This document shows, piece by piece, positions 5,836 through 50,050 of a stretch of 64,000 bases of DNA (positions are counted from its first letter, which is position 1; each line of letters opens with the position of its first letter). Both the position numbers and the translations under genes were made by a program. The DNA lies in contig CM034394.1 of assembly GCA_019925095.2 (NCBI GenBank), forward strand, positions 23,112,272 through 23,176,271. Direction: 5' to 3'. Origin of the DNA: Dendrolimus kikuchii. Lineage: Eukaryota; Arthropoda; Insecta; Lepidoptera; Lasiocampidae. The notes beneath the pieces were generated by a model. It worked only from the letters and a program-made list of their open reading frames with translations, was not told the DNA's origin and did not search any database.

Positions 5836-6007
5836 TCAAAAGTAAAATAAACGATTGAAAATAGTATAGATGGGTTTATCAAGAATTGAGAAATACTACA
5901 TTTAATACAGACGATTAAATTTTAATCTTAGGCGCTGGGCCGTTGCCAACGGCGTAGGCTGCCTACGGCGTGATATTATTATACGCGGCCTACGAATGAT
6001 CTATCTA

Positions 6008-6630
6008 CTGCGAAGCTGACAAGACGGCTTATCTAATGGAAAATATTTACAACTGCTGTAAAGCTGACAAGACAGCCTATCTAATGGAAAACGTTTACGA
6101 GTGCTGTGAAGCTGACAAGACGGCCTATCTAATGGAAAATGTTTCGGATTGCTGTGAAGCTGACAAGACGGCCTATCTAATGCAAAATGTTTACGATTGC
6201 TGCGGAGCTGACAAGACGGCCTATCTAATGGAAAATGTTTGCGATTGCTGCGAAGCTGACAAGGCGGCTAATCTAATGGAAAATATTTTTGATTGCTGCG
6301 CAGCTGGCAAGACGGCCTATCTAACGGAAAATGTTTACGATTGCTGCGGAGCTGACAAGACGGCCTATCTAATAGAAAATGTTTGCGATTGCTGCGAAGC
6401 TGACAAGGCGGCTAATCTAATGGAAAATATTTTTGAATGCTGCGCAGCTGACAAGACGGCCTATCTAACGGAAAATGTTTACGATTGCTGCGGAGCTGAC
6501 AAGACGGCCTATCTAATGGAAAATATTTACGATTGCTGCGAAGCTGACAAGGCGGCCTATCTAATGGAAAATGTTTTTGATTGCTGCGCAGTTGACAATA
6601 CGGCCTATCTAATGGAAAATGTTTACGTGT
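6008..6630. repeat. 48-bp minisatellite, ~13 units, open in frame
   Basis: Head-to-tail 48-bp units encode a 16-residue repeat on the plus strand, such as MENVYDCCEADKTAYL, inside a 220-codon ORF (6036-6698). Units alternate subtly (DCCGAD, DCCEAD, FDCCAA), which suggests higher-order duplication of 2-3 units. Because 48 is divisible by three, any frame open in one unit stays open in all, so the long ORF is weak evidence of coding; the minus strand is also open at 6412-6666. The right edge (about 6600-6650) reads GGCCTATCTAATGG...TTTGCAACACC, matching family A (GGCCCACTTGATGG...TTTGCAACACC). The array therefore probably grew from a family A relative. Confidence 0.85.
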
Positions 6631-6902
6631 ATAGGCACACGTTTGCAACACCAGAAGCGAAGCCAACGTGTTGCCAACTTTTAGGATGGGCTACATAGGA
6701 ATAGATTAGAGGAGATCGGATTCATTCTTGCATCGATAAGTAGGTTTCATCACCATATTTGTCTTCACCATTAGAAAAAATGCCTAAACTGTGCATGCTT
6801 CGCGGCCAGGATTCTAAGCTATGTCCTTTGAATGAGACATGTGTCTAATAGCCACTAAGCTATCATAACAAAAATACCTCAGCTTTTATCTTCTCACATT
6901 CT

Positions 6903-16295: not shown

Positions 16296-16519
16296 TATTA
16301 TAAATGCCATTGTGAGTTTGTTTGTGACCTTACTTGACTACGGAACAGATCGTTAGGGAACGTATCCATACTATGCGACCCAGTTTTTTGCAATTATTTA
16401 CCCCCTCCCAAGCGGTGACCACCCGTAGTGTATAGCAGGACCCCCCCGCCTCTCCCTTTACTTGTCACGTAGTAATTCATAAATATGCTTTTAAATTATT
16501 TTTGCATACAGAAATTTAA

Positions 16520-17043
16520 AAAAAAAGAACACTTTATTTCAAAACAGTCTATTCTGTATGGCGACTAAAATTTACAATAAACTACCATTAAAAATAAAGG
16601 AACTCAACATCAAAAGCTTTAAAATAGAATTACGACAATTATTAATAAATAAAGCATATTACACAGTACATGAGTATCTTAGTAAAGTAGTTCGTAATAC
16701 CGAAGTAAGAAAGAGAGTTGGTCTGAAAGAGAGTGTCGGGGTGAAGGTAAGGAAAGGAATGCTCCGGTGGTTCGGGCATGTGGAAAGAATGCATGATGAA
16801 AGAATGACTAAACAGATATACAATGCAAAAGTGGATGGATGCAGAAGTCGTGGAAGGCGACGACACACATTCCATGATCAAATTGATCGTGTACTAGCAG
16901 AAGGTGATGTCAGGAGCCTTAAGAACAGACGAGTGTGCATGACAAGAGTTATGAATGTCAAAGAAGCAAGTGAGGTGTGTAAAAATAAGCCTGAATGGAG
17001 CTCTGTTGGAACTGACGTGAAGTTATGTATGTATGTATGTATA
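16520..17043 (+). mobile_element. Chimeric junction: LINE C-terminus fused to family B copy B5
   Basis: One 162-codon frame (16558-17046) joins two unrelated LINE ends. Up to about 16689 the peptide (NSLFCMATKIYNKLPLKIKEL, then LLINKAYYTVHEYL) is the C-terminal helix region of a Jockey/L2-like polymerase. From 16690 it switches to family B (VRNTEVRKRVGLKESVGVKV onward). Family B then has a deletion near its end (ELSSVGTDVK in place of the AYPARELA region) before the (TATG)n tail. The fusion is a by-product of insertion, not a designed gene. Confidence 0.7.
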
Positions 17044-18051
17044 TAATTTAGGCTTTTATACGCAAGCGAAGCCACGGTAAAAACTTTAGCTTAGCTAGTT
17101 AATTTATAAATAACAATTACAAATAACACTCTACGCTTTGATCCAATTAGCTATATTAAACATTTCTAGAGCTCCTAAATTAAAACGTTAATAATGAATA
17201 GGATTTTTCGAAATGTCAATTACACGTTCGCCTGCACTGAGAGCATTATCACTTATTTATGCTCATTATGCCCAAAAGCTATTTCAGTCTCGCAATTAAC
17301 TGGATCTAACACCACACGGGAATACTTACGTCGTTTACTCGTCTAAAAATTTTAATTTGTCACCAAGTTGCTTTAGGGTTCTTTTCTGGATATAAATTTA
17401 TTTTCATTCACGATAAAAGGCCAAGCCTTTTCTAGTCAGTTTTATCCGTGCAGGAACGGAGAAAGAATACACGATGCGTTTTAACAAGAAGCAAAATTTT
17501 GTTTTGATCTTAGCTTTAATTACAAATGTAAATGAGGAAAAAATAGAAGACTACAGGCAAAACAATGGTTGTTCAAGTTTTAAAATCTCCTCCATTATTT
17601 GGCGTTCGGTACGAATGAACACATCATCGTTGCCGTTATCCTTGTCGTCCATCTTGAAACCACAAGTATAACCTTAAATCATATAAACGTCTAGATACCG
17701 CATAAACTGCACAAAAACGTCCACAAAATTGGTGCACTTGCTCCCCACGTATGTTAGTGTCGTTTTGACTACTTTGCTGGTTAGAGCTCTCGCGAAAAAA
17801 AACATTATGCCGTCCTGCGCTATTAAAATGTGTTGATAAAGAGGAAAGAATAAGGATGAGATCTCATTTCATCCGTAAGTTTAACAGTTTTCTCATGATT
17901 TCTTTATGAAAACATGAAATTTAATTTCGATAAATCAAAGGTTATCGTATTGATCTCGTTATGCTGTCAGCGCTGCTCTTCCGACTGGGATCAGCAGGTG
18001 AAGTTACGAAGGATAATACACAATACTTCACAAATTTTAATTTATTGCTTA
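17044..18051. other. No supported gene; 31-bp family A head at 17441-17471
   Basis: Apart from TTTATCCGTGCAGGAACGGA plus a few bases (the exact 5' head of family A, cut after GAATAC), nothing is identifiable. The 65-codon ORF 17474-17671 is unassigned. Confidence 0.5.
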
Positions 18052-18667
18052 CGAGTATATTACATACATACATACATACATAACTTCACGCCAGTTCCCT
18101 TGCGGGGTAGGCACGAACAACAGAGTGCCATTTAGGCTTATTCTTACACACCTCACTTGCCTCTTTGACATTCATAACTCTTGTCATGCAAGCTCATCTG
18201 TTCTTAAGGCTCCTGACATCACCTTCTGCTAGTACACGATCAATTTGATCATGGAAGGTGTGTCGTGGCCTTCCACGACTTCTGCATCCATCCACTTTTG
18301 CATTGTATATCTGTTTAGTCATTCTTTCATCATGCATTATTTCCACATGCCCGAACCACCGGAGCATTCCTTTCCTTACCTTCACTCCGACACTCTCTTT
18401 CAGACCAACTCTCTTCCTTACTTCGGTATTACGAACGCGGTCCGCGAGCGTCACTCCGCAGATTTTGCGCAGTGCTCGCATCTCGACCGCATTTACTCTA
18501 CTTTCATGCTCTCTCTTCCATACCCAACTCTCGCATCCATACGTAAGCGTAGGTACCAGCACCGCGTTGTGTATGGCGAGCTGGGCCTTCTGGCTGAGGT
18601 TCTTAGCGCCTAGAAGTTTACCTAACGCTCCATTCACACTATTCCCCAAACAATCGAGTATATTACA
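18052..18667 (-). mobile_element. Family B LINE, copy B6, 13-bp target duplication
   Basis: Minus-strand copy from the TACATACATAC tail (18061) to about 18650, bounded by CGAGTATATTACA at 18052-18064 and 18655-18667. The minus-strand frame is uninterrupted for 151 codons (18649-18194), from LGNSVNGALGKLLGAK through FGHVEIMHDERM to VRSLKNR. It is thus a recent-looking but deeply 5'-truncated copy, interrupted only near AYPARELA by the stop in CAAGCTCATC context. Confidence 0.82.
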
Positions 18668-18966
18668 ATACGTTTAAATAAGTTATGAACATAAACGGAA
18701 CCATTCCGTAGAAAAGTTAGTGTGTCACTGCAACCTTCTTTCACATTATTCGTTTTTGCATGGAAAGCTGCGAAACAGTTTTTTTAATTCTGTCTGTTTG
18801 TGATGTATCCAGGCTGCGATATTTTTATATTTGCAACGGGAATAGACTTCATACGGCATTTTGAATAAATTCTACAATTTATTTCCACCTTAAGCCACGT
18901 ATAGTAAAATACATTTGTGTCTATTATTTTGATTTTACAGAAGCTTAAATTTCTATGATTCATATA

Positions 18967-28969: not shown

Positions 28970-28983
28970 ACAATTATAATACA

Positions 28984-29120
28984 TGTAGGATGGTGGTTGC
29001 GTAGCAACTAGTTATTGATAGATGGATTGTGAGACGAGCATTGTAATATTTCTTTACTTTATTGTGTTTAATTAATATACGAGTTTGAAGATTTGTAAAT
29101 CATTTATTTAGTATCCTACA
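28984..29120 (+). repeat. 5' LTR (137 bp)
   Basis: Starts TGTAGGATGG and ends TATCCTACA, with a perfect 8-bp TGTAGGAT/ATCCTACA terminal inverted repeat. Very short for an insect LTR and without an obvious AATAAA. Identical by eye to the copy at 30666-30802. Confidence 0.9.
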
Positions 29121-29124
29121 TTTT

Positions 29125-29142
29125 TGGGGGCTCGTCCGGGAT
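29125..29142 (+). promoter_or_regulatory. Primer-binding site, tRNA-Pro type
   Basis: TGGGGGCTCGTCCGGGAT, four bases after the 5' LTR. It is the same 18 nt known as the tRNA-Pro primer-binding site of gammaretroviruses, complementary to the 3' end of tRNA-Pro including CCA. In this element it should prime minus-strand DNA synthesis from host tRNA-Pro. Confidence 0.85.
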
Positions 29143-29190
29143 ATTACAAAAATCGTCCGGGATATTACAAAAATCGTTCGGGATGGGGGC
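29132..29190 (+). repeat. Tandem 21-bp units overlapping the primer-binding site
   Basis: Units at 29132-29152 and 29153-29173 (TCGTCCGGGATATTACAAAA plus A) are identical. A third, partial unit (29174-29184) has TTCG for TCCG and runs into TGGGGGC (29184-29190), the first bases of the primer-binding site again. So the 3' part of the site is triplicated. Confidence 0.85.
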
Positions 29191-29334
29191 AGATGGCTTG
29201 AAGACTGTGTACAATATTATGTTGAGAATTTGAAGACGAATTTATACGATGTCAATTTTTTTTGAAGATGAATGTTGAAGAGGAAGCTGATTCTTTTATG
29301 ATGTTTTAGAATTAGTATTAAGAAGATAAAGACG

Positions 29335-30213
29335 ATGATGTATTTTGATTTCAAGAGTGTAGAAGACTCTGTCACTAAATTTTCAGGGGATGATCCTGAG
29401 TATACCGTGTCAAAATGGGCTCAGCAAATTGCGACAGCTACTGATAGATACTGTTTATCACCAGGTTTGACATTATTTATTGCAAAAAGATCATTGATTT
29501 CTACTGCAGCTTTGTGGTTACGAACTGAAAGTCCTTTCAAGACTTACGAAGAATTGAAAATTGCTTTATCTCAAGAATTTCCTGAAGAAAACTCGGATAA
29601 AGAACGTATTTTAGATCAGATGATGAAAAGAATTAAAGGCGAAAGTGGTTATGATTACGTTCTGAGAGTGAAAGAGTTGGGTAAAAGAGGGAGTATACCG
29701 GAAAATTTTACGAGGCTTGTGATTAAACAAGGGATAAAGGATACTAGCATAAGCGAACAACAAATAAAGGATTGGTTTTACAGAAAGCAACGATATGTGC
29801 AGGACGTAAAAATAAAGCAATCAGAGAAGATTACATCAGTCACAGTTACTATGACAATAAATAACACTATGTCAATGATGTATGAACAAAAGGACGATTT
29901 GAATAGCCAAAATTTTAAAAATGATAATAGTGGTTCAGTTTTATCTAAAAATCCTGATACTTTTATAGAAACATGTACTAGTAGCATCCCAATACCTTCA
30001 GAAGCAGAAATTATTTTACAAAGCAAATCTAAGGCTAAGAGTAAGAACAAAAAACAAGGAGTTTTAAAGAAAGAGGGGGAGAAATTACATTTCAAACGGA
30101 TAAAATCATTGAAGAGCAGGAGTTCTACATTTAGTGAAAGAAAATACGCCAATAAAGGCTTTTACAAAAATTTTGTGATATTGAAGGAAAAGACGAACTA
30201 CAGAAAAAAATGA
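29335..30213 (+). CDS. gag: Gag polyprotein of the gag-only LTR element
   Basis: A 292-residue protein, uninterrupted. Residues ~10-140 follow the Ty3/Gypsy-type capsid pattern: FSGDDPEYTVSKWAQQI, then LISTAALWLR (the conserved A-x-x-W), TYEELKIALSQEFPEEN (K/E-rich helix ending F), then DYVLRVKELGKRG and LVIKQGIKD. This resembles Gypsy/Arc-like capsids and suggests particle assembly. Residues ~230-292 are strongly basic (KSKAKSKNKKQ, LKSRSS), likely for RNA binding, with no CCHC zinc knuckle. ATGs at 29335 and 29338 are both possible starts; the first is chosen, 215 bp after the LTR. It overlaps the next ORF at ATGA. The capsid family is inference from pattern, not a profile search. Confidence 0.75.
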   Translation: MMYFDFKSVEDSVTKFSGDDPEYTVSKWAQQIATATDRYCLSPGLTLFIAKRSLISTAALWLRTESPFKTYEELKIALSQEFPEENSDKERILDQMMKRIKGESGYDYVLRVKELGKRGSIPENFTRLVIKQGIKDTSISEQQIKDWFYRKQRYVQDVKIKQSEKITSVTVTMTINNTMSMMYEQKDDLNSQNFKNDNSGSVLSKNPDTFIETCTSSIPIPSEAEIILQSKSKAKSKNKKQGVLKKEGEKLHFKRIKSLKSRSSTFSERKYANKGFYKNFVILKEKTNYRKK

Positions 30214-30428
30214 CTAATTTTAAAGGAAGAAGAGAAGTTAATAGAGTTGTGGATATAGCCTTTAAAAGAAAAGTATGGAGTAAAAGCTTTATGAAAGTAA
30301 GATTTTATATTGGAAAGAGACAGTTTCAAGATATAATTTTGTGTTATAAAGTCAGAAAGAAAAAGAAATGCTACAGACACTTAGATGGTTATTTGGATGA
30401 AGTAGAAAAATGGCCAGATGATGTATAA
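30210..30428 (+). CDS. Small basic ORF overlapping gag by ATGA (-1 frame)
   Basis: 72 codons beginning at the A of an ATGA junction with gag (gag stop TGA 30211-30213). The protein is lysine/arginine-rich (FKRKVWSKSF, KVRKKKKCYRHL) with an acidic end (LDEVEKWPDDV). The frame is -1 relative to gag, the usual gag-pol relation, and A-runs precede the junction. It may be a vestige of a former pol C-terminus or a new accessory ORF; I do not recognise it. Expression could be by termination-reinitiation or frameshifting. Chance openness cannot be excluded at this length. Confidence 0.4.
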   Translation: MTNFKGRREVNRVVDIAFKRKVWSKSFMKVRFYIGKRQFQDIILCYKVRKKKKCYRHLDGYLDEVEKWPDDV

Positions 30429-30665
30429 CTGGATCATGTAAATGTAATGATGAAATGCATTACGTGAATGTTTTGTTTTAATTAATATAAGAATAATTTT
30501 AGTTTTTATTTTCATTGAAGAATAGTTCATTGACTTTGTTTGTTTATATGTTAGTCTAGATTGTGTTTCATTTGTAATGATAGGATATTCTGTAAGTACG
30601 TATAATTTTATGTTCTTGGAAGCTTATAGAATATCTGAGGACAGATATTTTGCAGGATAGCCGAG

Positions 30666-30802
30666 TGTAGGATGGTGGTTGCGTAGCAACTAGTTATTGA
30701 TAGATGGATTGTGAGACGAGCATTGTAATATTTCTTTACTTTATTGTGTTTAATTAATATACGAGTTTGAAGATTTGTAAATCATTTATTTAGTATCCTA
30801 CA
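30666..30802 (+). repeat. 3' LTR (137 bp)
   Basis: Same sequence and length as the 5' LTR. The base run just before it (GCAGGATAGCCGAG) is a poor polypurine tract, so the plus-strand primer is not obvious. Confidence 0.9.
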
Positions 30803-31605
30803 TACATACATACATAACTTCACGCTAGTTCCCTTGCGGGGTAGGCACGAACAACAGAGCGCCATTTAGGCTTATTCATACACACCTCACTTGCGTCTTT
30901 GACATTCATAACTCTTGTCATGCACGCTCGTCTGTTCTTAAAGGCTCCTGACATCACCTTCTGCTAGTACACGATCAATTTGATCATGGAAAGTGTGTCG
31001 TGGCCTTCCACGACTTCTGCATCCATCCACTTTTGCATTGTATATCTGTTTAGTCATTCTTTCATCATGCATTCTTCCCATATGCCCGAACCACCGGAGC
31101 ATTCCTTTCCTTACCTTTACCCCGACCCTCTCTTTCTTACTTCGGTATTACGAACGCGTTCCGCGAGCGTCACTCCGCAGATTTTGCGCAGTGCTCGCAT
31201 CTCGACCGCGTTTACTCTACTTTCATGCTCTCTCTTCCATACCCAACTCTCGCTTCCATACGTGAGCGTAGGAGCGTAGAGCGCACCGCGTTGTGTACGG
31301 CGAGCTGGGCCTTCTGGCTGAGGTTCTTAGCGCCTAGAAGTTTACCTAACGCTTCATTCAAACTATTCCCCAAATTCACTCTTCTTTCTATATCAGCGGT
31401 GTACCTTCTATGCCTGCTAAAAGCACATCCAAGATATACAAACTCATTCACATGCTCTAGCATAACATCATCGACCATTATCCTTGCATTCGTTCTGGTT
31501 TCTTCTCTTTCAAACACCATAACCTTTGTTTTCTTCGCATTCAAATGTAAGCCTCTCGCCTGACAGTCATCTTTCATCATTGTGACTAGTGTTTGCAGTT
31601 CTGAT
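30803..31605 (-). mobile_element. Family B LINE, copy B7 (longest copy)
   Basis: Reads leftward and extends furthest 5' of all copies. The minus-strand frame from 31580 holds DCQARGLHLNAKKTKVMVF (the RT region after the YADD box), VYLGCAFSR and DIERRVNLGNS. A frameshift near 31275 (around AVHNAV) and further indels near 31120 break the frame before the RWFGH block. Its tail is now the junction with the LTR element, and its 12-bp target duplication is split by that element. Confidence 0.82.
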
Positions 31606-33960: not shown

Positions 33961-34557
33961 ACATGCCGTATCTCGGGCCACGGACTGGTTGTGTCCAGTT
34001 ATATTTGTACCTGTGTTATACCGGCATAATTGCGCAAGTGTGCGGGGCAACACACGTGTGCAGCCCCGCTACATTACATCCCTTCCGGAAAAAAAATATC
34101 TCCCACAAAACAGTTTGTGCCAAAATCGAACTTTTATCTTCCAGTTTATTAATCGAATTTAATCGAATTAAAAAAAAAAAAACAAATTCCGTGAAAAGTG
34201 CTCCCCGCGTATTAATCGAATCGGAAAAAAATAATTAATTAATAAATTTTCAAAAAGCCAAAGTGATCAATTAACACAAAAGTACAAAAAAAGTACAAAA
34301 AAAAAACAAGTTAAAAAAACCCAGTGTACAAAAACTGAACTATATTCCCATTTTGGACTTAATAAGGAAAATAATCCGCGTAAATCCAAATTATTGAATA
34401 AGGTGTAAACCGGCTGCCACAAATAAATACCCTGACTGACGCAGTGTGGACAAAAAATCGGCTTACTCACATTTTTTGTGCCACCTTAATAGGCCGATCA
34501 CCCTACATACCCAATTGCCTAACTCAGTTATACAAAAAAAATATACTAAAACAAAAC

Positions 34558-35637
34558 ATGACGAGCAAAAACTGTCACACGTGCAACGAAACCATACAGA
34601 GTTCATCTTATTTGGAGTGTTCAAAATGTAACAAAAACTACGACCTGACCTGTGCGAACTTAACAGAAAAAGCATATAAGGCCCTGACCCAATCTTACAA
34701 AAAAAGCTGGTTATGCCCAAACTGTACCTGCTCCCGTCCCAAAGGCGAGGCTACACCGACTCCAAACCGCTTGTCAACAGATGGGGGGTCAAAGGACATT
34801 CACAACAAAACAGCAAAGCTTACTACAACCCGTAGTTCGAAACCTAAAACAAAGCCGAACAAAGAAAACTCGCTTAGTCTGACCGATCTCACCGATCCCA
34901 CACTTTTAACTGAAATTCGCCTATTAAGGCAGGAAATCAGTGACATGAAGGCGCAAAACGTGGAAATTAGCCTCTTGCGTCAGGAACTTCTTGAACTCAA
35001 ACACCAAATAACAGCTATGTCATCAACAGCTCTAGAAAACCAAACTAAAGTCCGCGAAGAACTAGAAACAGCCCAAAAGAGCATTATTGATCTTAAATGC
35101 ACAGTAACTCAACTTCAACAGCGCCTAAACTTCCAAGAACAGAACGAACTAAGAAATGAGATAGAAATCATTGGCATTCCGGAACTAAACAACGAGAACT
35201 TAGCCCACGTCATCCAAGTGACATCGCAGAAAATAGGCATACAACTTGCTGAAACAGACATCGACTACATGTCACGCATCGGTCCTAAACGTTCCCAAGA
35301 GACTCACTCATTGACTACAAGACAACATCAACCCCGTCCAATAATCGTTAAACTATTACGACGCCAGAAAAGAAATGAAATAATCAGCGCTGCCAAAGCT
35401 AGAAAAAATCTCACATCTGAAAGCATAGTTCCTGGGTCTCCCAAGAAAATATACATAAATGAGCGACTTACCAAAGACCATCGAGTGTTATTTCGTGAAG
35501 CCAGGGACCAAGCTGCAGCTAATAAATTTAAATACTGCTGGATTAAAAACGGAGGTATATTTGTCCGTGAAAATGATAATAAGCCAGCGATTAAAATTAA
35601 TAGCATTAATGACCTCAATAAATACGTTGTGTCTTAA
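34558..35637 (+). CDS. LINE ORF1 protein (PHD-like finger, coiled coil, RRM-like)
   Basis: 359 residues from the ATG at 34558; the upstream in-frame ATG at 34444 adds 38 residues with no motif, so the later start, immediately before the finger, is preferred. Residues 6-56 form a C4-x-C3 PHD-like finger: C6, C9, C21, C24, then YDLTC (C32) and C53/C56, with aspartate where the usual histidine would be. Residues ~116-200 are a heptad-rich coiled coil (TEIRLLRQEISDMKAQNVEI). Residues ~201-290 begin NEIEIIGIPE, as in LINE ORF1 RRM domains. A C-terminal block (LTKDHRVLFREARDQAAANK) completes it. The known role of the family is RNA chaperone and RNP formation. No stops or shifts. Confidence 0.85.
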   Translation: MTSKNCHTCNETIQSSSYLECSKCNKNYDLTCANLTEKAYKALTQSYKKSWLCPNCTCSRPKGEATPTPNRLSTDGGSKDIHNKTAKLTTTRSSKPKTKPNKENSLSLTDLTDPTLLTEIRLLRQEISDMKAQNVEISLLRQELLELKHQITAMSSTALENQTKVREELETAQKSIIDLKCTVTQLQQRLNFQEQNELRNEIEIIGIPELNNENLAHVIQVTSQKIGIQLAETDIDYMSRIGPKRSQETHSLTTRQHQPRPIIVKLLRRQKRNEIISAAKARKNLTSESIVPGSPKKIYINERLTKDHRVLFREARDQAAANKFKYCWIKNGGIFVRENDNKPAIKINSINDLNKYVVS

Positions 35638-35870
35638 ACCTGCCAGATATCATTGTGAATTAAATTCTGTATTAGATGTAAGTCCAATTACTGCCACTCG
35701 TATATGCCATGTGCCCGTAAGTTTTTATATCACTGTATTACATATATGCTTTACTCAGTACACAAACACACACTACACACATTTCAAATATACAACACTA
35801 TACAACACTAAACACCAAAACAGTATATACCCATTTTTGTTAAATGCTCATTGTCACACTAATCACATAA

Positions 35871-38800
35871 CATTTATGCAATATTACATGTCTCCATATT
35901 TATTACACTCATCTCCAGGCTCTCTTTCTACATATACTACACGTCGAACAAACATATCTTATAAAATTCAATATTGACATCATATCTGAATCAGATAAAG
36001 TCCTCAATATAAACTGTCATAATATCGAAAGCCTGGAAAAATGTAGTGAATACGTTCCAAACACAAAATCTAATTGGAAACTACTAACGTTTAATATTAG
36101 AAGTATATCAAAAAACTTTGATGAATTTACAGTAGTTCTGGGGCGCCTAAAAATTGAATTTGATGTTATTATTCTTACAGAGTGTTGGTTAAATGAATAT
36201 ATGACCTTACCATCTCTATCAGGATATAATTCATACAGAACAAATAAATACATAAACAAAAGCGGTGGGGTTACTGCGTATGTTAAAAATTCATGGGATG
36301 CTACAGTATCTGAACCAACAATTGAAGATTGTAATTGCCTAGAAATAGACCTGTGCCCTACTATCACTATACTTGGGGTGTATCGATCACCATCCTTTAC
36401 ATCTTTGGAGTCTTTTCTCTTTTCCCTTGATCAGTTACTGAAAAGTGTCAGTACAAAGCAACGTTTAATTCTTGCAGGTGATTTAAACATAAACATAAAC
36501 GAAATTACACTCAATGAACAAAGTTCTGACTATCTCAATATGCTAGCAGGACACTTCTTAATACCTGCAATTACTAAACCAACAAGATCAAATGCATGTC
36601 TAGACCACATCTTTGTAAAGAATCCAAATGACGAATTAGGTACAGGAGTAGGTTTAATAGCCCACACAGATATAACTGATCACAGACTGTGTATGTTATA
36701 CTTACCCTTTTCCCCAAAAAAACCTTTTAAAAAACATCGGACGAGATTAGTCACGAATTACTCCGCTGTAGCTGACTCATTAGAACAGATAGATTGGTCA
36801 ACTATAACTAAAAGTGAGGACGTCGATAATGCAACGATTCTATTTCAAAACTATCTAAGTCAGTCAATCTTAAAAAATACAAAAGAAATTGTTATTCCAA
36901 GGACCAAATACAACCTCAAACCCTGGATAACTCCCGGCTTAATGAGGTGTCAAAGAAATCGTGACTCCCTACATCTCCAATCAAAAAAAGATCCCACTAA
37001 CGTAGTCCTAAATATAACATATAAAAGATATCGCAACTTCCTGAATAAGCTTCTCATGAAGATCAAGACTTCATATGAAAATCAGCAACTGTCAAAATAT
37101 TGTAACAATCCCAAAATGCTTTGGCAAACGATAAACAATATCTGTAATTTATCTAAATCCCGCAATACACCAACAGAATTAATTAGACCTGATAATCCAA
37201 ACGACTCACTAAATGACTGTAACAGATACTTCGCAAACGTTGGTAGCGCCCTGGCAAACCAAACACTAACCAAACTAAACTGCACAGAGACCACCCTCGC
37301 TTCTGACATTAAAGCCGATAATTCTCCACTCCATTCGTTACTCATGTACCCTACTGATGAAGAAGAAGTGGGCTCATTCATCAATGAGCTCAGGATAGGT
37401 AGTGCTCCTGGTGCAGATAACTGTGACCCCCTTCTAATTAAAATGATAAAGCCTATCATAATACAACCTTTTACCCATATATGCAATATCAGTTTAAGCA
37501 CTGGAAAATTCCCGGATAAGTGGAAACTAGGCCAAATATCGCCAATTTACAAAGGTGGTGATAGAACCCTCCCTAGCAACTACAGGCCAATCACCTTATT
37601 AAGTGTATTCTCAAAGTTACTAGAGAAAGTAGTTAACAAACGGCTTGTCGATTTCTTGGAAAAATACTCTCTTATCTCTGATAAGCAGTTCGGATTTCGG
37701 CAGAATATATCAACAGAAGATGCCGTCCTAGCTCTAACAAAGTCAATCGCCACATCCCTGGACCAAAATCAATGTTGCCTAGGTGTATTCCTAGATTTAG
37801 CGAAAGCTTTTGACACGGTCTCGATTCCCATCCTCCTTAGTAAACTAAATCATATTGGTGTAAGAGGTATAAGTCACGAATGGTTTAAAAGCTACCTGAG
37901 TAATCGCTGTCAATTTGTTAAGGTGGGATCGCATTGTAGTGAACAGCATACAGTAAATTTTGGAGTACCCCAAGGCAGCATTTTAGGACCTACACTATTC
38001 TTAATATATATTAATGAACTGCCGAAAATTCCGATCCAGGGCGCTAACATAATATGTTATGCAGATGATACGGTTGTATTATTTAACAACAAATCCTGGG
38101 AGTCAGTGTTTAAAACAGCTCAGACAGGCTTAACCGACATCAGTAAATGGCTAAACAATAACCTACTAACATTAAACACTAAAAAAACTAAATATTTAAC
38201 GTTTCATAAAACCCGTGCTTCCCAACCTCGTACGCATCCTAAATTATATCTGTCGCACAGCCTAAGCTCTTGTATACAGTCCTCTGATCATCCCCCGTCG
38301 ATCGAACACACCACATCTATTACGTATCTTGGTATCCAACTAGATGAAAAATTAAATTTCAAAAGTCATATTACATCCCTATCTAAAAGAGTCAGAAAAA
38401 CCATTTACATCATGAAATCCCTCTGTAGCTGTGCGACACCAAAAACTTTAAAAATGGTTTACTATGCGCTGTGCCAGTCGTTACTTCTATACTGTCTTGC
38501 TGCTTGGGGAGGAATCCCAAAAACAAACATTATAGAGGTAGAACGAGCACAGCGAGCAGTACTTAAAGTTATGCATAAAAAACCGTACAGATATCCCACC
38601 AATACACTATACATAGAAAGTGACGTTTTGACAGTCCGACAACTCTATATTTGCAAGGTAGCCACAGCAATTCATAAACAAAACCTAAATGCCCCTAACT
38701 TCCAATACCTCAGCTCCCGTAGAATTTATAATATACCCTTACCTAAAATACATACAACCTTTGCCAAACGCCTTCCTCCATATATCCATATATCCATTTA

Positions 38801-38924
38801 TAATAAAGTATGCCAAAACACACCCTCCGCCAAAGAAATGTCAGCACCAAAGTTTAAACACCAAGTTAGTAAATGGTTAAAAACATTAAATTACAGTGAC
38901 ACAGAAAGCACAATACTAAACTGA
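35871..38924 (+). CDS. LINE ORF2: APE endonuclease and reverse transcriptase
   Basis: The frame is open from 35871 and the first ATG is at 36201 (907 aa from there). Endonuclease motifs begin before that ATG: LLTFNIRS at ~36080 and LTECWL at ~36175 (catalytic Asn and Glu), then GVYRSPS, AGDLNINI, LDHIFV and TDHRLCML. RT blocks follow in order: GQISPIYKGGD, SNYRPITLLS, FGFRQNIST, FLDLAKAFDTV, GVPQGSILGPTLFLIYINEL, YADDTVVLF (YADD at 38058-38069), LNTKKTKYL and YLGIQLDEKLNF. The C-terminus has C-x-L-x-AWGG and no RNase H. It nicks target DNA and primes cDNA synthesis there. All catalytic residues appear present; the missing ATG upstream of the endonuclease suggests a lost start codon, non-AUG start or reinitiation after ORF1. 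Confidence 0.88.
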   Translation, partial: HLCNITCLHIYYTHLQALFLHILHVEQTYLIKFNIDIISESDKVLNINCHNIESLEKCSEYVPNTKSNWKLLTFNIRSISKNFDEFTVVLGRLKIEFDVIILTECWLNEYMTLPSLSGYNSYRTNKYINKSGGVTAYVKNSWDATVSEPTIEDCNCLEIDLCPTITILGVYRSPSFTSLESFLFSLDQLLKSVSTKQRLILAGDLNININEITLNEQSSDYLNMLAGHFLIPAITKPTRSNACLDHIFVKNPNDELGTGVGLIAHTDITDHRLCMLYLPFSPKKPFKKHRTRLVTNYSAVADSLEQIDWSTITKSEDVDNATILFQNYLSQSILKNTKEIVIPRTKYNLKPWITPGLMRCQRNRDSLHLQSKKDPTNVVLNITYKRYRNFLNKLLMKIKTSYENQQLSKYCNNPKMLWQTINNICNLSKSRNTPTELIRPDNPNDSLNDCNRYFANVGSALANQTLTKLNCTETTLASDIKADNSPLHSLLMYPTDEEEVGSFINELRIGSAPGADNCDPLLIKMIKPIIIQPFTHICNISLSTGKFPDKWKLGQISPIYKGGDRTLPSNYRPITLLSVFSKLLEKVVNKRLVDFLEKYSLISDKQFGFRQNISTEDAVLALTKSIATSLDQNQCCLGVFLDLAKAFDTVSIPILLSKLNHIGVRGISHEWFKSYLSNRCQFVKVGSHCSEQHTVNFGVPQGSILGPTLFLIYINELPKIPIQGANIICYADDTVVLFNNKSWESVFKTAQTGLTDISKWLNNNLLTLNTKKTKYLTFHKTRASQPRTHPKLYLSHSLSSCIQSSDHPPSIEHTTSITYLGIQLDEKLNFKSHITSLSKRVRKTIYIMKSLCSCATPKTLKMVYYALCQSLLLYCLAAWGGIPKTNIIEVERAQRAVLKVMHKKPYRYPTNTLYIESDVLTVRQLYICKVATAIHKQNLNAPNFQYLSSRRIYNIPLPKIHTTFAKRLPPYIHISIYNKVCQNTPSAKEMSAPKFKHQVSKWLKTLNYSDTESTILN

Positions 38925-49075: not shown

Positions 49076-49543
49076 ATGTATACAAGTCGCGAAAACTTAA
49101 GAAACAATAATATTCATTATACTCTTTCGTTGTGTTATTTTTTTAAATTCTACTCTCCTGGTTTACGAGTATTGCAACTATGGATTAAAAAAATAATGAT
49201 TTGTTTGTATTCGTTCAATGAAAGTGTGACATACGTGAACACAGTGGTATAACATTGCTCATTAAACATGTATGTAGGAGTGTATGAATATGTGGGCTTT
49301 ATCAGCTATTAGAAAATTTGTATGACAGCCGTAGGTTGTATTTTGTACACTGCATTTTCAAAGAAATGAAGGAAGAGCTCTATTGATTTCCTAACAACGC
49401 ACAAAATACATAACATGGATTCTCAAAAACAAATTTTACAAATTGAAGCTTGAATTGAAGTGCATATTTTTTCGCATTTTGGAAACAACAATTTACATAA
49501 AACCTTCTTATGTTTCGGGACTATCACACATACTATAACTAAG

Positions 49544-50050
49544 TAAGTAAGTCCACCTACGCTCACGTATGGAAGCGAGAGTTGGGTATGGAATAGAGAG
49601 CATGAAAGTAGAGTAAACGCGGTCGAGATGCGAGCACTGCGCAAAATCTGCGGAGTGACGCTCGCGGACCGCGTTCGTAATACCGAAGTAAGAAAGAGAG
49701 TTGGTCTGAAAGAGAGTGCGGGGTGAAGGTAAGGAAAGGAATGCTCCGGTGGTTCGGGCATATGGGAAGAATGCATGAAGAAAGAATGACTAAACAGATA
49801 CACAATGCAAAAGTGGATGGATGCAGAAGTCGTGGAAAGCCACGAAACACCTTCCATGATCAAATTGATCGTGTACTAGCAGAAGGTGATCTCAGGAGCC
49901 TTAAGAACAGACGAGTGTGCATGACAAGAGTTATGAATGTCAAAGAAGCAAGTGAGGTGTGTAAGAATAATCCTAAATGGCGCTCTGTTGTTCGTGCCTA
50001 CCCCGCAAGGGAACTGGCGTGAAGTTATGTATGTATGTAAGTAAGTCCAC
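49544..50050 (+). mobile_element. Family B LINE, copy B9, 13-bp target duplication
   Basis: Body 49557-50037, flanked by TAAGTAAGTCCAC at 49544-49556 and 50038-50050. It begins in the TYGSESWVW region. A one-base loss in GAGAGTGCGGGGTG (others GAGAGTGTCGGGGTG) shifts the frame; ORF resumes at MKVRKGMLRWFGHMGRM (49723) and is then open to AYPARELA and the tail. Confidence 0.85.

What the first reader, a model, noticed from the sequence alone, without database searches (positions are those of the whole stretch)
28984..30802. Compact gag-only LTR retrotransposon with identical 137-bp LTRs
LTRs, tRNA-Pro primer site, intact 292-codon Gag and a clean TACA duplication are all present in 1.8 kb, with no pol at all. 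Elements with LTRs and a lone GAG are known mainly from plants; an apparently recent, intact one in an insect-like genome may be a new non-autonomous family that supplies its own capsid but borrows enzymes.
Basis: partly seen in the sequence, partly recalled or inferred. Interest (0 to 1): 0.88.

Follow-up and report, generated by a model that had tools for sequence, protein, structure and literature searches.

The report
Gag-only retrotransposon family in a moth
A small mobile element in what looks like a moth genome carries only a capsid-type (Gag) gene and no copying enzymes; it is not a one-off fragment but one of a repeated family whose Gag shows signs of selection, and it shares its ends with a related element type that it may depend on.

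Summary
The structure is real: identical 137-bp LTRs, an exact 18-nt tRNA-Pro primer site, TACA duplications, no pol. It belongs to a family: of 19 copies checked in the same 705-Mb genome, 15 have perfect 4-bp duplications. Gag is under purifying selection between subfamilies (dN/dS 0.26-0.52 in four pairs, bootstrap intervals below 1), though not measurably within the window's own. So this is not a lone deletion.

Corrections: the "292-codon Gag" is shortened; in 5 of 20 copies it continues through the next frame to 363-393 codons. There is no canonical polypurine tract.

Three loci share the LTR (94-100%) and primer site and then diverge; two carry another Gag, one of them with a zinc knuckle and 28% identical to this one. 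LTR and coding identities conflict, which points to recombination. Most likely the element supplies Gag and borrows enzymes in trans. No partner with reverse transcriptase was seen; 19 requests for it did not complete. Closest known kind: plant TR-GAG elements.

The parts
28980..28983 (.). left target site duplication TACA
   Evidence: equal 4-bp flanks in 15 of 19 copies
28984..29120 (+). 5' LTR, 137 bp, TGTAGGAT...ATCCTACA
   Evidence: 100% identical to 30666-30802
29125..29142 (+). primer binding site, tRNA-Pro, 18 nt, four T after the LTR
   Evidence: exact in 16 of the 21 family rows with a 5' LTR (not in L016, L018, L025, L026, L029)
29132..29184 (+). 2.5 tandem 21-nt repeats made of the 3' part of the primer site plus ATTACAAAAA
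   Evidence: unit number varies between copies
29335..30213 (+). gag open frame, 292 codons; residues 6-137 homologous to the zinc-knuckle Gag of L012
30210..30428 (+). frame of the Lys/Arg-rich C-terminal part of the same protein in longer copies; out of frame with gag here; not pol
30429..30665 (+). non-coding tail, found in all three subfamilies
30654..30665 (+). AGGATAGCCGAG before the 3' LTR: stands where a polypurine tract should; AGGATGGCCGAG in most copies
   Evidence: 15 of 19 exact, the other 4 (this copy included) one base off
30666..30802 (+). 3' LTR, 137 bp
30803..30806 (.). right target site duplication TACA (in a TACA run)

Best explanation
It is a member of a non-autonomous, Ty3/Gypsy-like LTR retrotransposon family, in what is probably a moth or butterfly, that encodes only a Gag. 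Shown: LTRs, tRNA-Pro primer site, target duplications, many gag-only copies, purifying selection on Gag between subfamilies, a related Gag behind the same LTR and primer site, and conflicting LTR and coding identities. Inferred: the LTR drives one RNA; its Gag makes or joins the particle; reverse transcriptase and integrase come from an element sharing the LTR ends and primer site, with both RNAs in one particle; template switching between them keeps the LTRs alike while the Gags diverge. This particular copy probably makes a shortened Gag and so would depend on other copies for it too.
For:: 60 matches in the host genome, 9 of them single-piece copies of about 1.8 kb at 92-100% identity, window included; 15 of 19 copies with equal 4-bp flanks; LTR pairs of 4 of 19 have no difference; 6 of 9 LTR-only loci have equal 4-bp flanks (solo LTRs); dN/dS below 1 between subfamilies; homology to a Gag with zf-CCHC; three loci share LTR (100, 99.3, 94.2%) and 23 nt including the primer site, then diverge; the window's LTRs are 98.5-100% like subfamily B but 94.1-96.4% like five of six listed copies of its own subfamily, while its Gag is the reverse.
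Against: No locus with LTR, primer site and reverse transcriptase was seen; the two loci with the other Gag are broken or truncated. No canonical polypurine tract. Within the window's own subfamily dN/dS is not distinguishable from 1, as expected for young dead copies but no proof of present function; 14 of 20 copies besides the window's have shorter frames. The capsid fold was not confirmed. Selection could date partly from an ancestor with pol. No formal recombination test was run; gene conversion is not excluded.
Confidence: 0.78

Rival explanations
1. Recurrent internal deletion derivatives: a pol-bearing element with this Gag exists and sheds gag-only copies from time to time; the purifying selection belongs to that element.
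For: Selection on Gag alone cannot say which element carried it. One search scored only the best 40 of 171 candidates, and pol was looked for only in the 41 loci fetched and with one probe from another clade, so a pol-bearing copy could be missed.
Against: All three subfamilies share the same order of Gag end, non-coding tail and 3' LTR, which points to one gag-only ancestor. The pol probe matched only L009, its own source, and that gag-pol has the same about 100-nt sequence of its own on both sides and looks nested.
Confidence: 0.12
2. A lone internal deletion of an ordinary element.
For: The window's own Gag frame is broken near its end.
Against: Many gag-only copies with their own target duplications.
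Confidence: 0.02
3. The Gag acts mainly on the partner or the host (as a competitor of the partner's particle, or a host-useful capsid), and selection reflects that.
For: It lacks a zinc-knuckle match and has a fast-diverging middle and a conserved basic C-terminal part, unusual for a plain packaging Gag.
Against: Copies sit between LTRs with target duplications at many places; no single locus stands out as a kept host gene in the data seen.
Confidence: 0.08

Closest known systems
TR-GAG elements of plants (Chaparro et al., not held; described in passages of PMC8704663 and PMC6022998)
   Same: LTRs, Gag as the only coding domain, no pol; one was reported to transpose in Arabidopsis ddm1
   Different: probably a moth host; the Arabidopsis case is highly similar to a potentially autonomous element, whereas here Gag is only 28% identical to the related Gag behind the same LTR and has no zinc-knuckle match
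CM-gag of Culex (Bensaadi-Merchermek 1997; title only, in the reference list of PMC3286476)
   Same: repeated insect element reported to contain only a gag gene
   Different: whether it has LTRs was not seen; no sequence compared
TRIM elements such as PbTRIM of harvester ants (PMC3532108, passages) and Helenus (PMC10886601, outline with abstract, and passages)
   Same: small non-autonomous LTR elements; 4-bp duplications in the ant and in animal Helenus
   Different: those encode no protein
HeT-A of Drosophila (PMC5009743, passage)
   Same: Gag-like protein only, no reverse transcriptase of its own
   Different: non-LTR, telomeric
BARE-2 of barley (title in the reference list of PMC6022998)
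   Same: non-autonomous LTR element described as a parasite's parasite
   Different: the mirror image: it lacks Gag

Membership tests
LTR retrotransposon | direct terminal repeats TG..CA with target duplication | tested here: met
   (equal 4-bp flanks in 15 of 19 copies)
LTR retrotransposon | tRNA primer site after the 5' LTR | tested here: met
   18 nt tRNA-Pro
LTR retrotransposon | polypurine tract before the 3' LTR | tested here: not met
   no purine run of 9 or more near the 3' LTR; a conserved non-canonical 12-mer stands there
TR-GAG-like (gag-only LTR element) | only a Gag domain between LTRs, no pol | tested here: met
TR-GAG-like (gag-only LTR element) | multi-copy family spread in that form | tested here: met
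   many gag-only copies with their own flanking duplications
TR-GAG-like (gag-only LTR element) | mobilised by the enzymes of another element | not testable with these tools
   enzyme donor not seen; searches for it unanswered
Ty3/Gypsy superfamily | Gag related to Retrotrans_gag | tested here: inconclusive
   no direct Pfam match; 28% identity, E 1e-9, to the L012 Gag, which matches zf-CCHC (2.9e-6) and, below cut-off, PF03732 (7e-4); the L038 Gag matches PF03732 above cut-off (3e-5)
Ty3/Gypsy superfamily | reverse transcriptase and integrase phylogeny | not testable with these tools
   no pol in this element; partner pol not found

The most novel reading that the evidence does not exclude
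A long-lived lineage of gag-only elements has kept, by selection, its own capsid protein, far diverged from the partner's Gag and without zinc knuckles, while repeatedly swapping LTR and primer site with the partner: an element that brings its own shell and borrows the enzymes.
Probability: 0.5. Interest if true: 0.75.

Novelty: new variant of a known kind. Interest (0 to 1): 0.62.

Why it matters
Many small non-autonomous LTR elements (the TRIMs) carry no protein, so what selects for a Gag in cis is an open question. Here several diverged gag-only subfamilies and a related Gag with the same LTR sit in one genome, which makes it testable whether a parasite element gains by supplying its own capsid.

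Tried and rejected
Gag in 5.8 billion proteins: none of 950 candidates at E 0.01 and none of 70, for residues 1-160, at E 10, though that library holds butterfly and moth proteins. Gag by tblastn in IMG/VR and GTDB: none; LTR, primer-site and tRNA patterns: none. Pfam: none; PDB sequence: one chance-level row, E 2.8. AlphaFold2 without an alignment: pLDDT 37 for the whole, 63 for residues 1-162, all helical; fold searches gave no match at E 0.001 and no capsid protein in the rows listed, which is no evidence against the fold. Rfam: nothing near a gathering score. I first read the 30210-30428 frame as a possible pol frame behind a slippery A-run (note); longer copies showed that it is the C-terminal part of the same protein. 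I first noted L009 as a candidate partner; reading it showed a nested gag-pol. A Gag-motif pattern was written after seeing the sequence and is not counted as evidence. My note of 16 of 19 exact pre-LTR motifs was a miscount; one search shows 15 of 19. A genome search for a reverse-transcriptase-bearing partner by its Gag did not complete.

Full report
What is there. Between 28984 and 30802 lie two identical 137-bp direct repeats with 8-bp inverted ends, flanked by TACA on both sides. Four T after the first repeat comes TGGGGGCTCGTCCGGGAT, which equals a published primer against the 3' end of human tRNA-Pro (PMC10993922, passage seen) and the proline primer site of murine leukaemia virus (PMC4587795, passages seen). 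The host's own tRNA-Pro was not checked. A 292-codon frame follows; none of 5000 first-order Markov sequences reached its 303 open codons. No pol was recognised in the 1545-bp interior.

Host. A nearby LINE has relatives in Plutella xylostella and Euphydryas editha (the only 2 of 120 listed rows that name an organism), and the assembly has 705 Mb in 49 contigs.

It is a family. One genome search was answered: 60 matches, with only the best 40 of 171 candidates scored, so counts are lower bounds. Nine single-piece copies of about 1.8 kb show 92-100% identity, the window's included; the other 51 rows are partial matches at 71-100%. I took 20 copies forward and 19 of them into the LTR check (L016 was left out because no 3' LTR was found in it). 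Family loci not taken forward: L009 (nested pol), L017, L028, L029/L030. In one search, 15 of 19 have equal 4-bp flanks; L006, L018, L020 and L021 do not; in L007 the last 8 bases of the 3' LTR do not match and its flank was read at the expected length. The 15 duplications all run T..A: TATA 7, TACA 3, TAAA 2, TGTA 2, TTTA 1; some lie in TA or TACA runs, where equal flanks are easier to get. Six of nine LTR-only loci also have equal 4-bp flanks (L015, L032, L033, L034, L036, L037; not L014, L031, L035), so solo LTRs exist. LTR pairs of 4 of 19 show no difference (L001, L003, L004, L021); with only 137 sites that sets a loose age limit.

The Gag. In 5 of 20 copies (L005, L007, L008, L021, L022) one frame runs through Gag and the next stretch to 363-393 codons. 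The remaining 14 of 20 copies have shorter frames. An A-run sits at the break (30204); slippage there could still yield some full product, which is untested.

Is it a Gag? It has no Pfam match and no better than chance match in PDB (three longer copies likewise have no gag match). But three loci, L011/L038 (one locus), L012 and L013, share the LTR at 100, 99.3 and 94.2% and the following 23 bases including the primer site, then diverge. L012 encodes a Gag with zf-CCHC (2.9e-6, above cut-off) and Retrotrans_gag (7e-4, below cut-off), besides a sub-cut-off match to an unrelated family (MGC-24); L038's Gag matches Retrotrans_gag at 3e-5, above cut-off. BLASTP of the window's Gag against L012's gives 28% identity over 135 residues, E 1e-9 for that single comparison; a subfamily B Gag gives 30%, E 2e-10; tblastn of the L012 Gag also finds the gag-only copies among the loci held (best E 6e-8). 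So it is a diverged Gag without a zinc-knuckle match, with a Lys/Arg-rich C-terminal part. L012 is a short insertion ending in a piece of LTR; L038 is split by a LINE; L013 shows no such Gag. After the L038 Gag comes a stretch that looks protease-like to my eye but has no Pfam match. A reverse transcriptase behind this LTR was not seen; a Gypsy-type pol probe from another clade matched only its own source among the 41 loci.

Selection. Subfamilies A (L001-L008, L010), B (L021-L023) and C (L024-L027) are my grouping by similarity. Pairwise NG86 dN/dS: L005-L021 0.43 (bootstrap 95% 0.31-0.57), L001-L021 0.52 (0.39-0.73), L005-L025 0.26 (0.15-0.41), L021-L025 0.33 (0.20-0.51); in none of 300 bootstraps each did the ratio reach 1. 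Within A: L005-L008 0.62 (0.32-1.38) and L007-L001 1.15 (0.56-3.19), not distinguishable from 1. Group means over the first 185 columns: A-B 0.375 (24 pairs), A-C 0.266 (18), B-C 0.362 (9), within A 0.641 (28; range 0.245-1.51) (L010 and L027 were not in it). Mean dS between groups was 0.27-0.60. Pairs share copies and are not independent. The pattern is that of masters under constraint leaving dead copies.

Mosaics. The window's LTRs are 98.5-100% identical to the three subfamily B copies but 94.1-96.4% to five of the six subfamily A copies listed (the sixth, L002, 99.3%; L004 and L006 were not listed). Its Gag is 91.3-97.6% like those five and 63.8-87.0% like B. The same LTR is 100% identical in L038, in front of another Gag. 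Recombination between element types explains this; template switching in shared particles is the usual route (general knowledge of retroelements). No formal recombination test was run, and gene conversion is not excluded.

Primer site repeats and 3' end. The 3' part of the primer site with ATTACAAAAA is repeated in tandem, and the number of units differs between copies (a strict pattern counted 0 to 4); L038 lacks the repeat. No purine tract lies before the 3' LTR; AGGATGGCCGAG stands there in 15 of 19 copies, one base off in the other 4. Its conservation suggests that it serves plus-strand priming; that is inference.

Verdict on novelty. All 11 papers found with the term TR-GAG are, by title and journal, on plants or on LTR tools and reviews applied to plants (listing). 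CM-gag of Culex is a prior claim of a gag-only insect element (title only). Searches for insect or lepidopteran gag-only LTR elements gave no paper, one plant paper, and a list of 16 in which the CM-gag reference was the only insect LTR-element lead I recognised, beside HeT-A (listing); this library lacks most subscription papers, and Repbase was not searchable. I rate it a new variant of a known kind.

Noticed in passing
34402-38924: LINE with two long open frames: ORF1 with Baculo_FP_2nd domain and a sub-cut-off PHD match, ORF2 with endonuclease and reverse transcriptase domains; the named relatives listed are from Plutella and Euphydryas.
   Followed up: partly
6000-6698: 232-codon frame made of a short repeated motif (ADKTAYLMENVYDCC and variants), probably a translated tandem repeat.
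   Followed up: no
323-805, 16495-17046, 18194-18673, 31054-31563, 49423-49875: By eye, pieces of one degraded coding sequence or its complement on both strands (such as RNTEVRKRVGLKESVGVKVRKGMLRWFGH), probably LINE fragments.
   Followed up: no
29132-29184: Part of the primer binding site repeated in tandem in the leader, with unit number varying between copies.
   Followed up: partly
L009 866-6536: A family copy split in its leader by a different gag-pol element whose own about 100-nt flanks occur on both sides, the left one shortened; LTR copies also stand in tandem and inverted at one end.
   Followed up: partly
L029-L030 (C30:3983583-3994340): Another copy of the family stretched to over 10 kb, near the L038 locus on the same contig; its leader and Gag start are about 97% like the window but its 3' part resembles subfamily B.
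   Followed up: no
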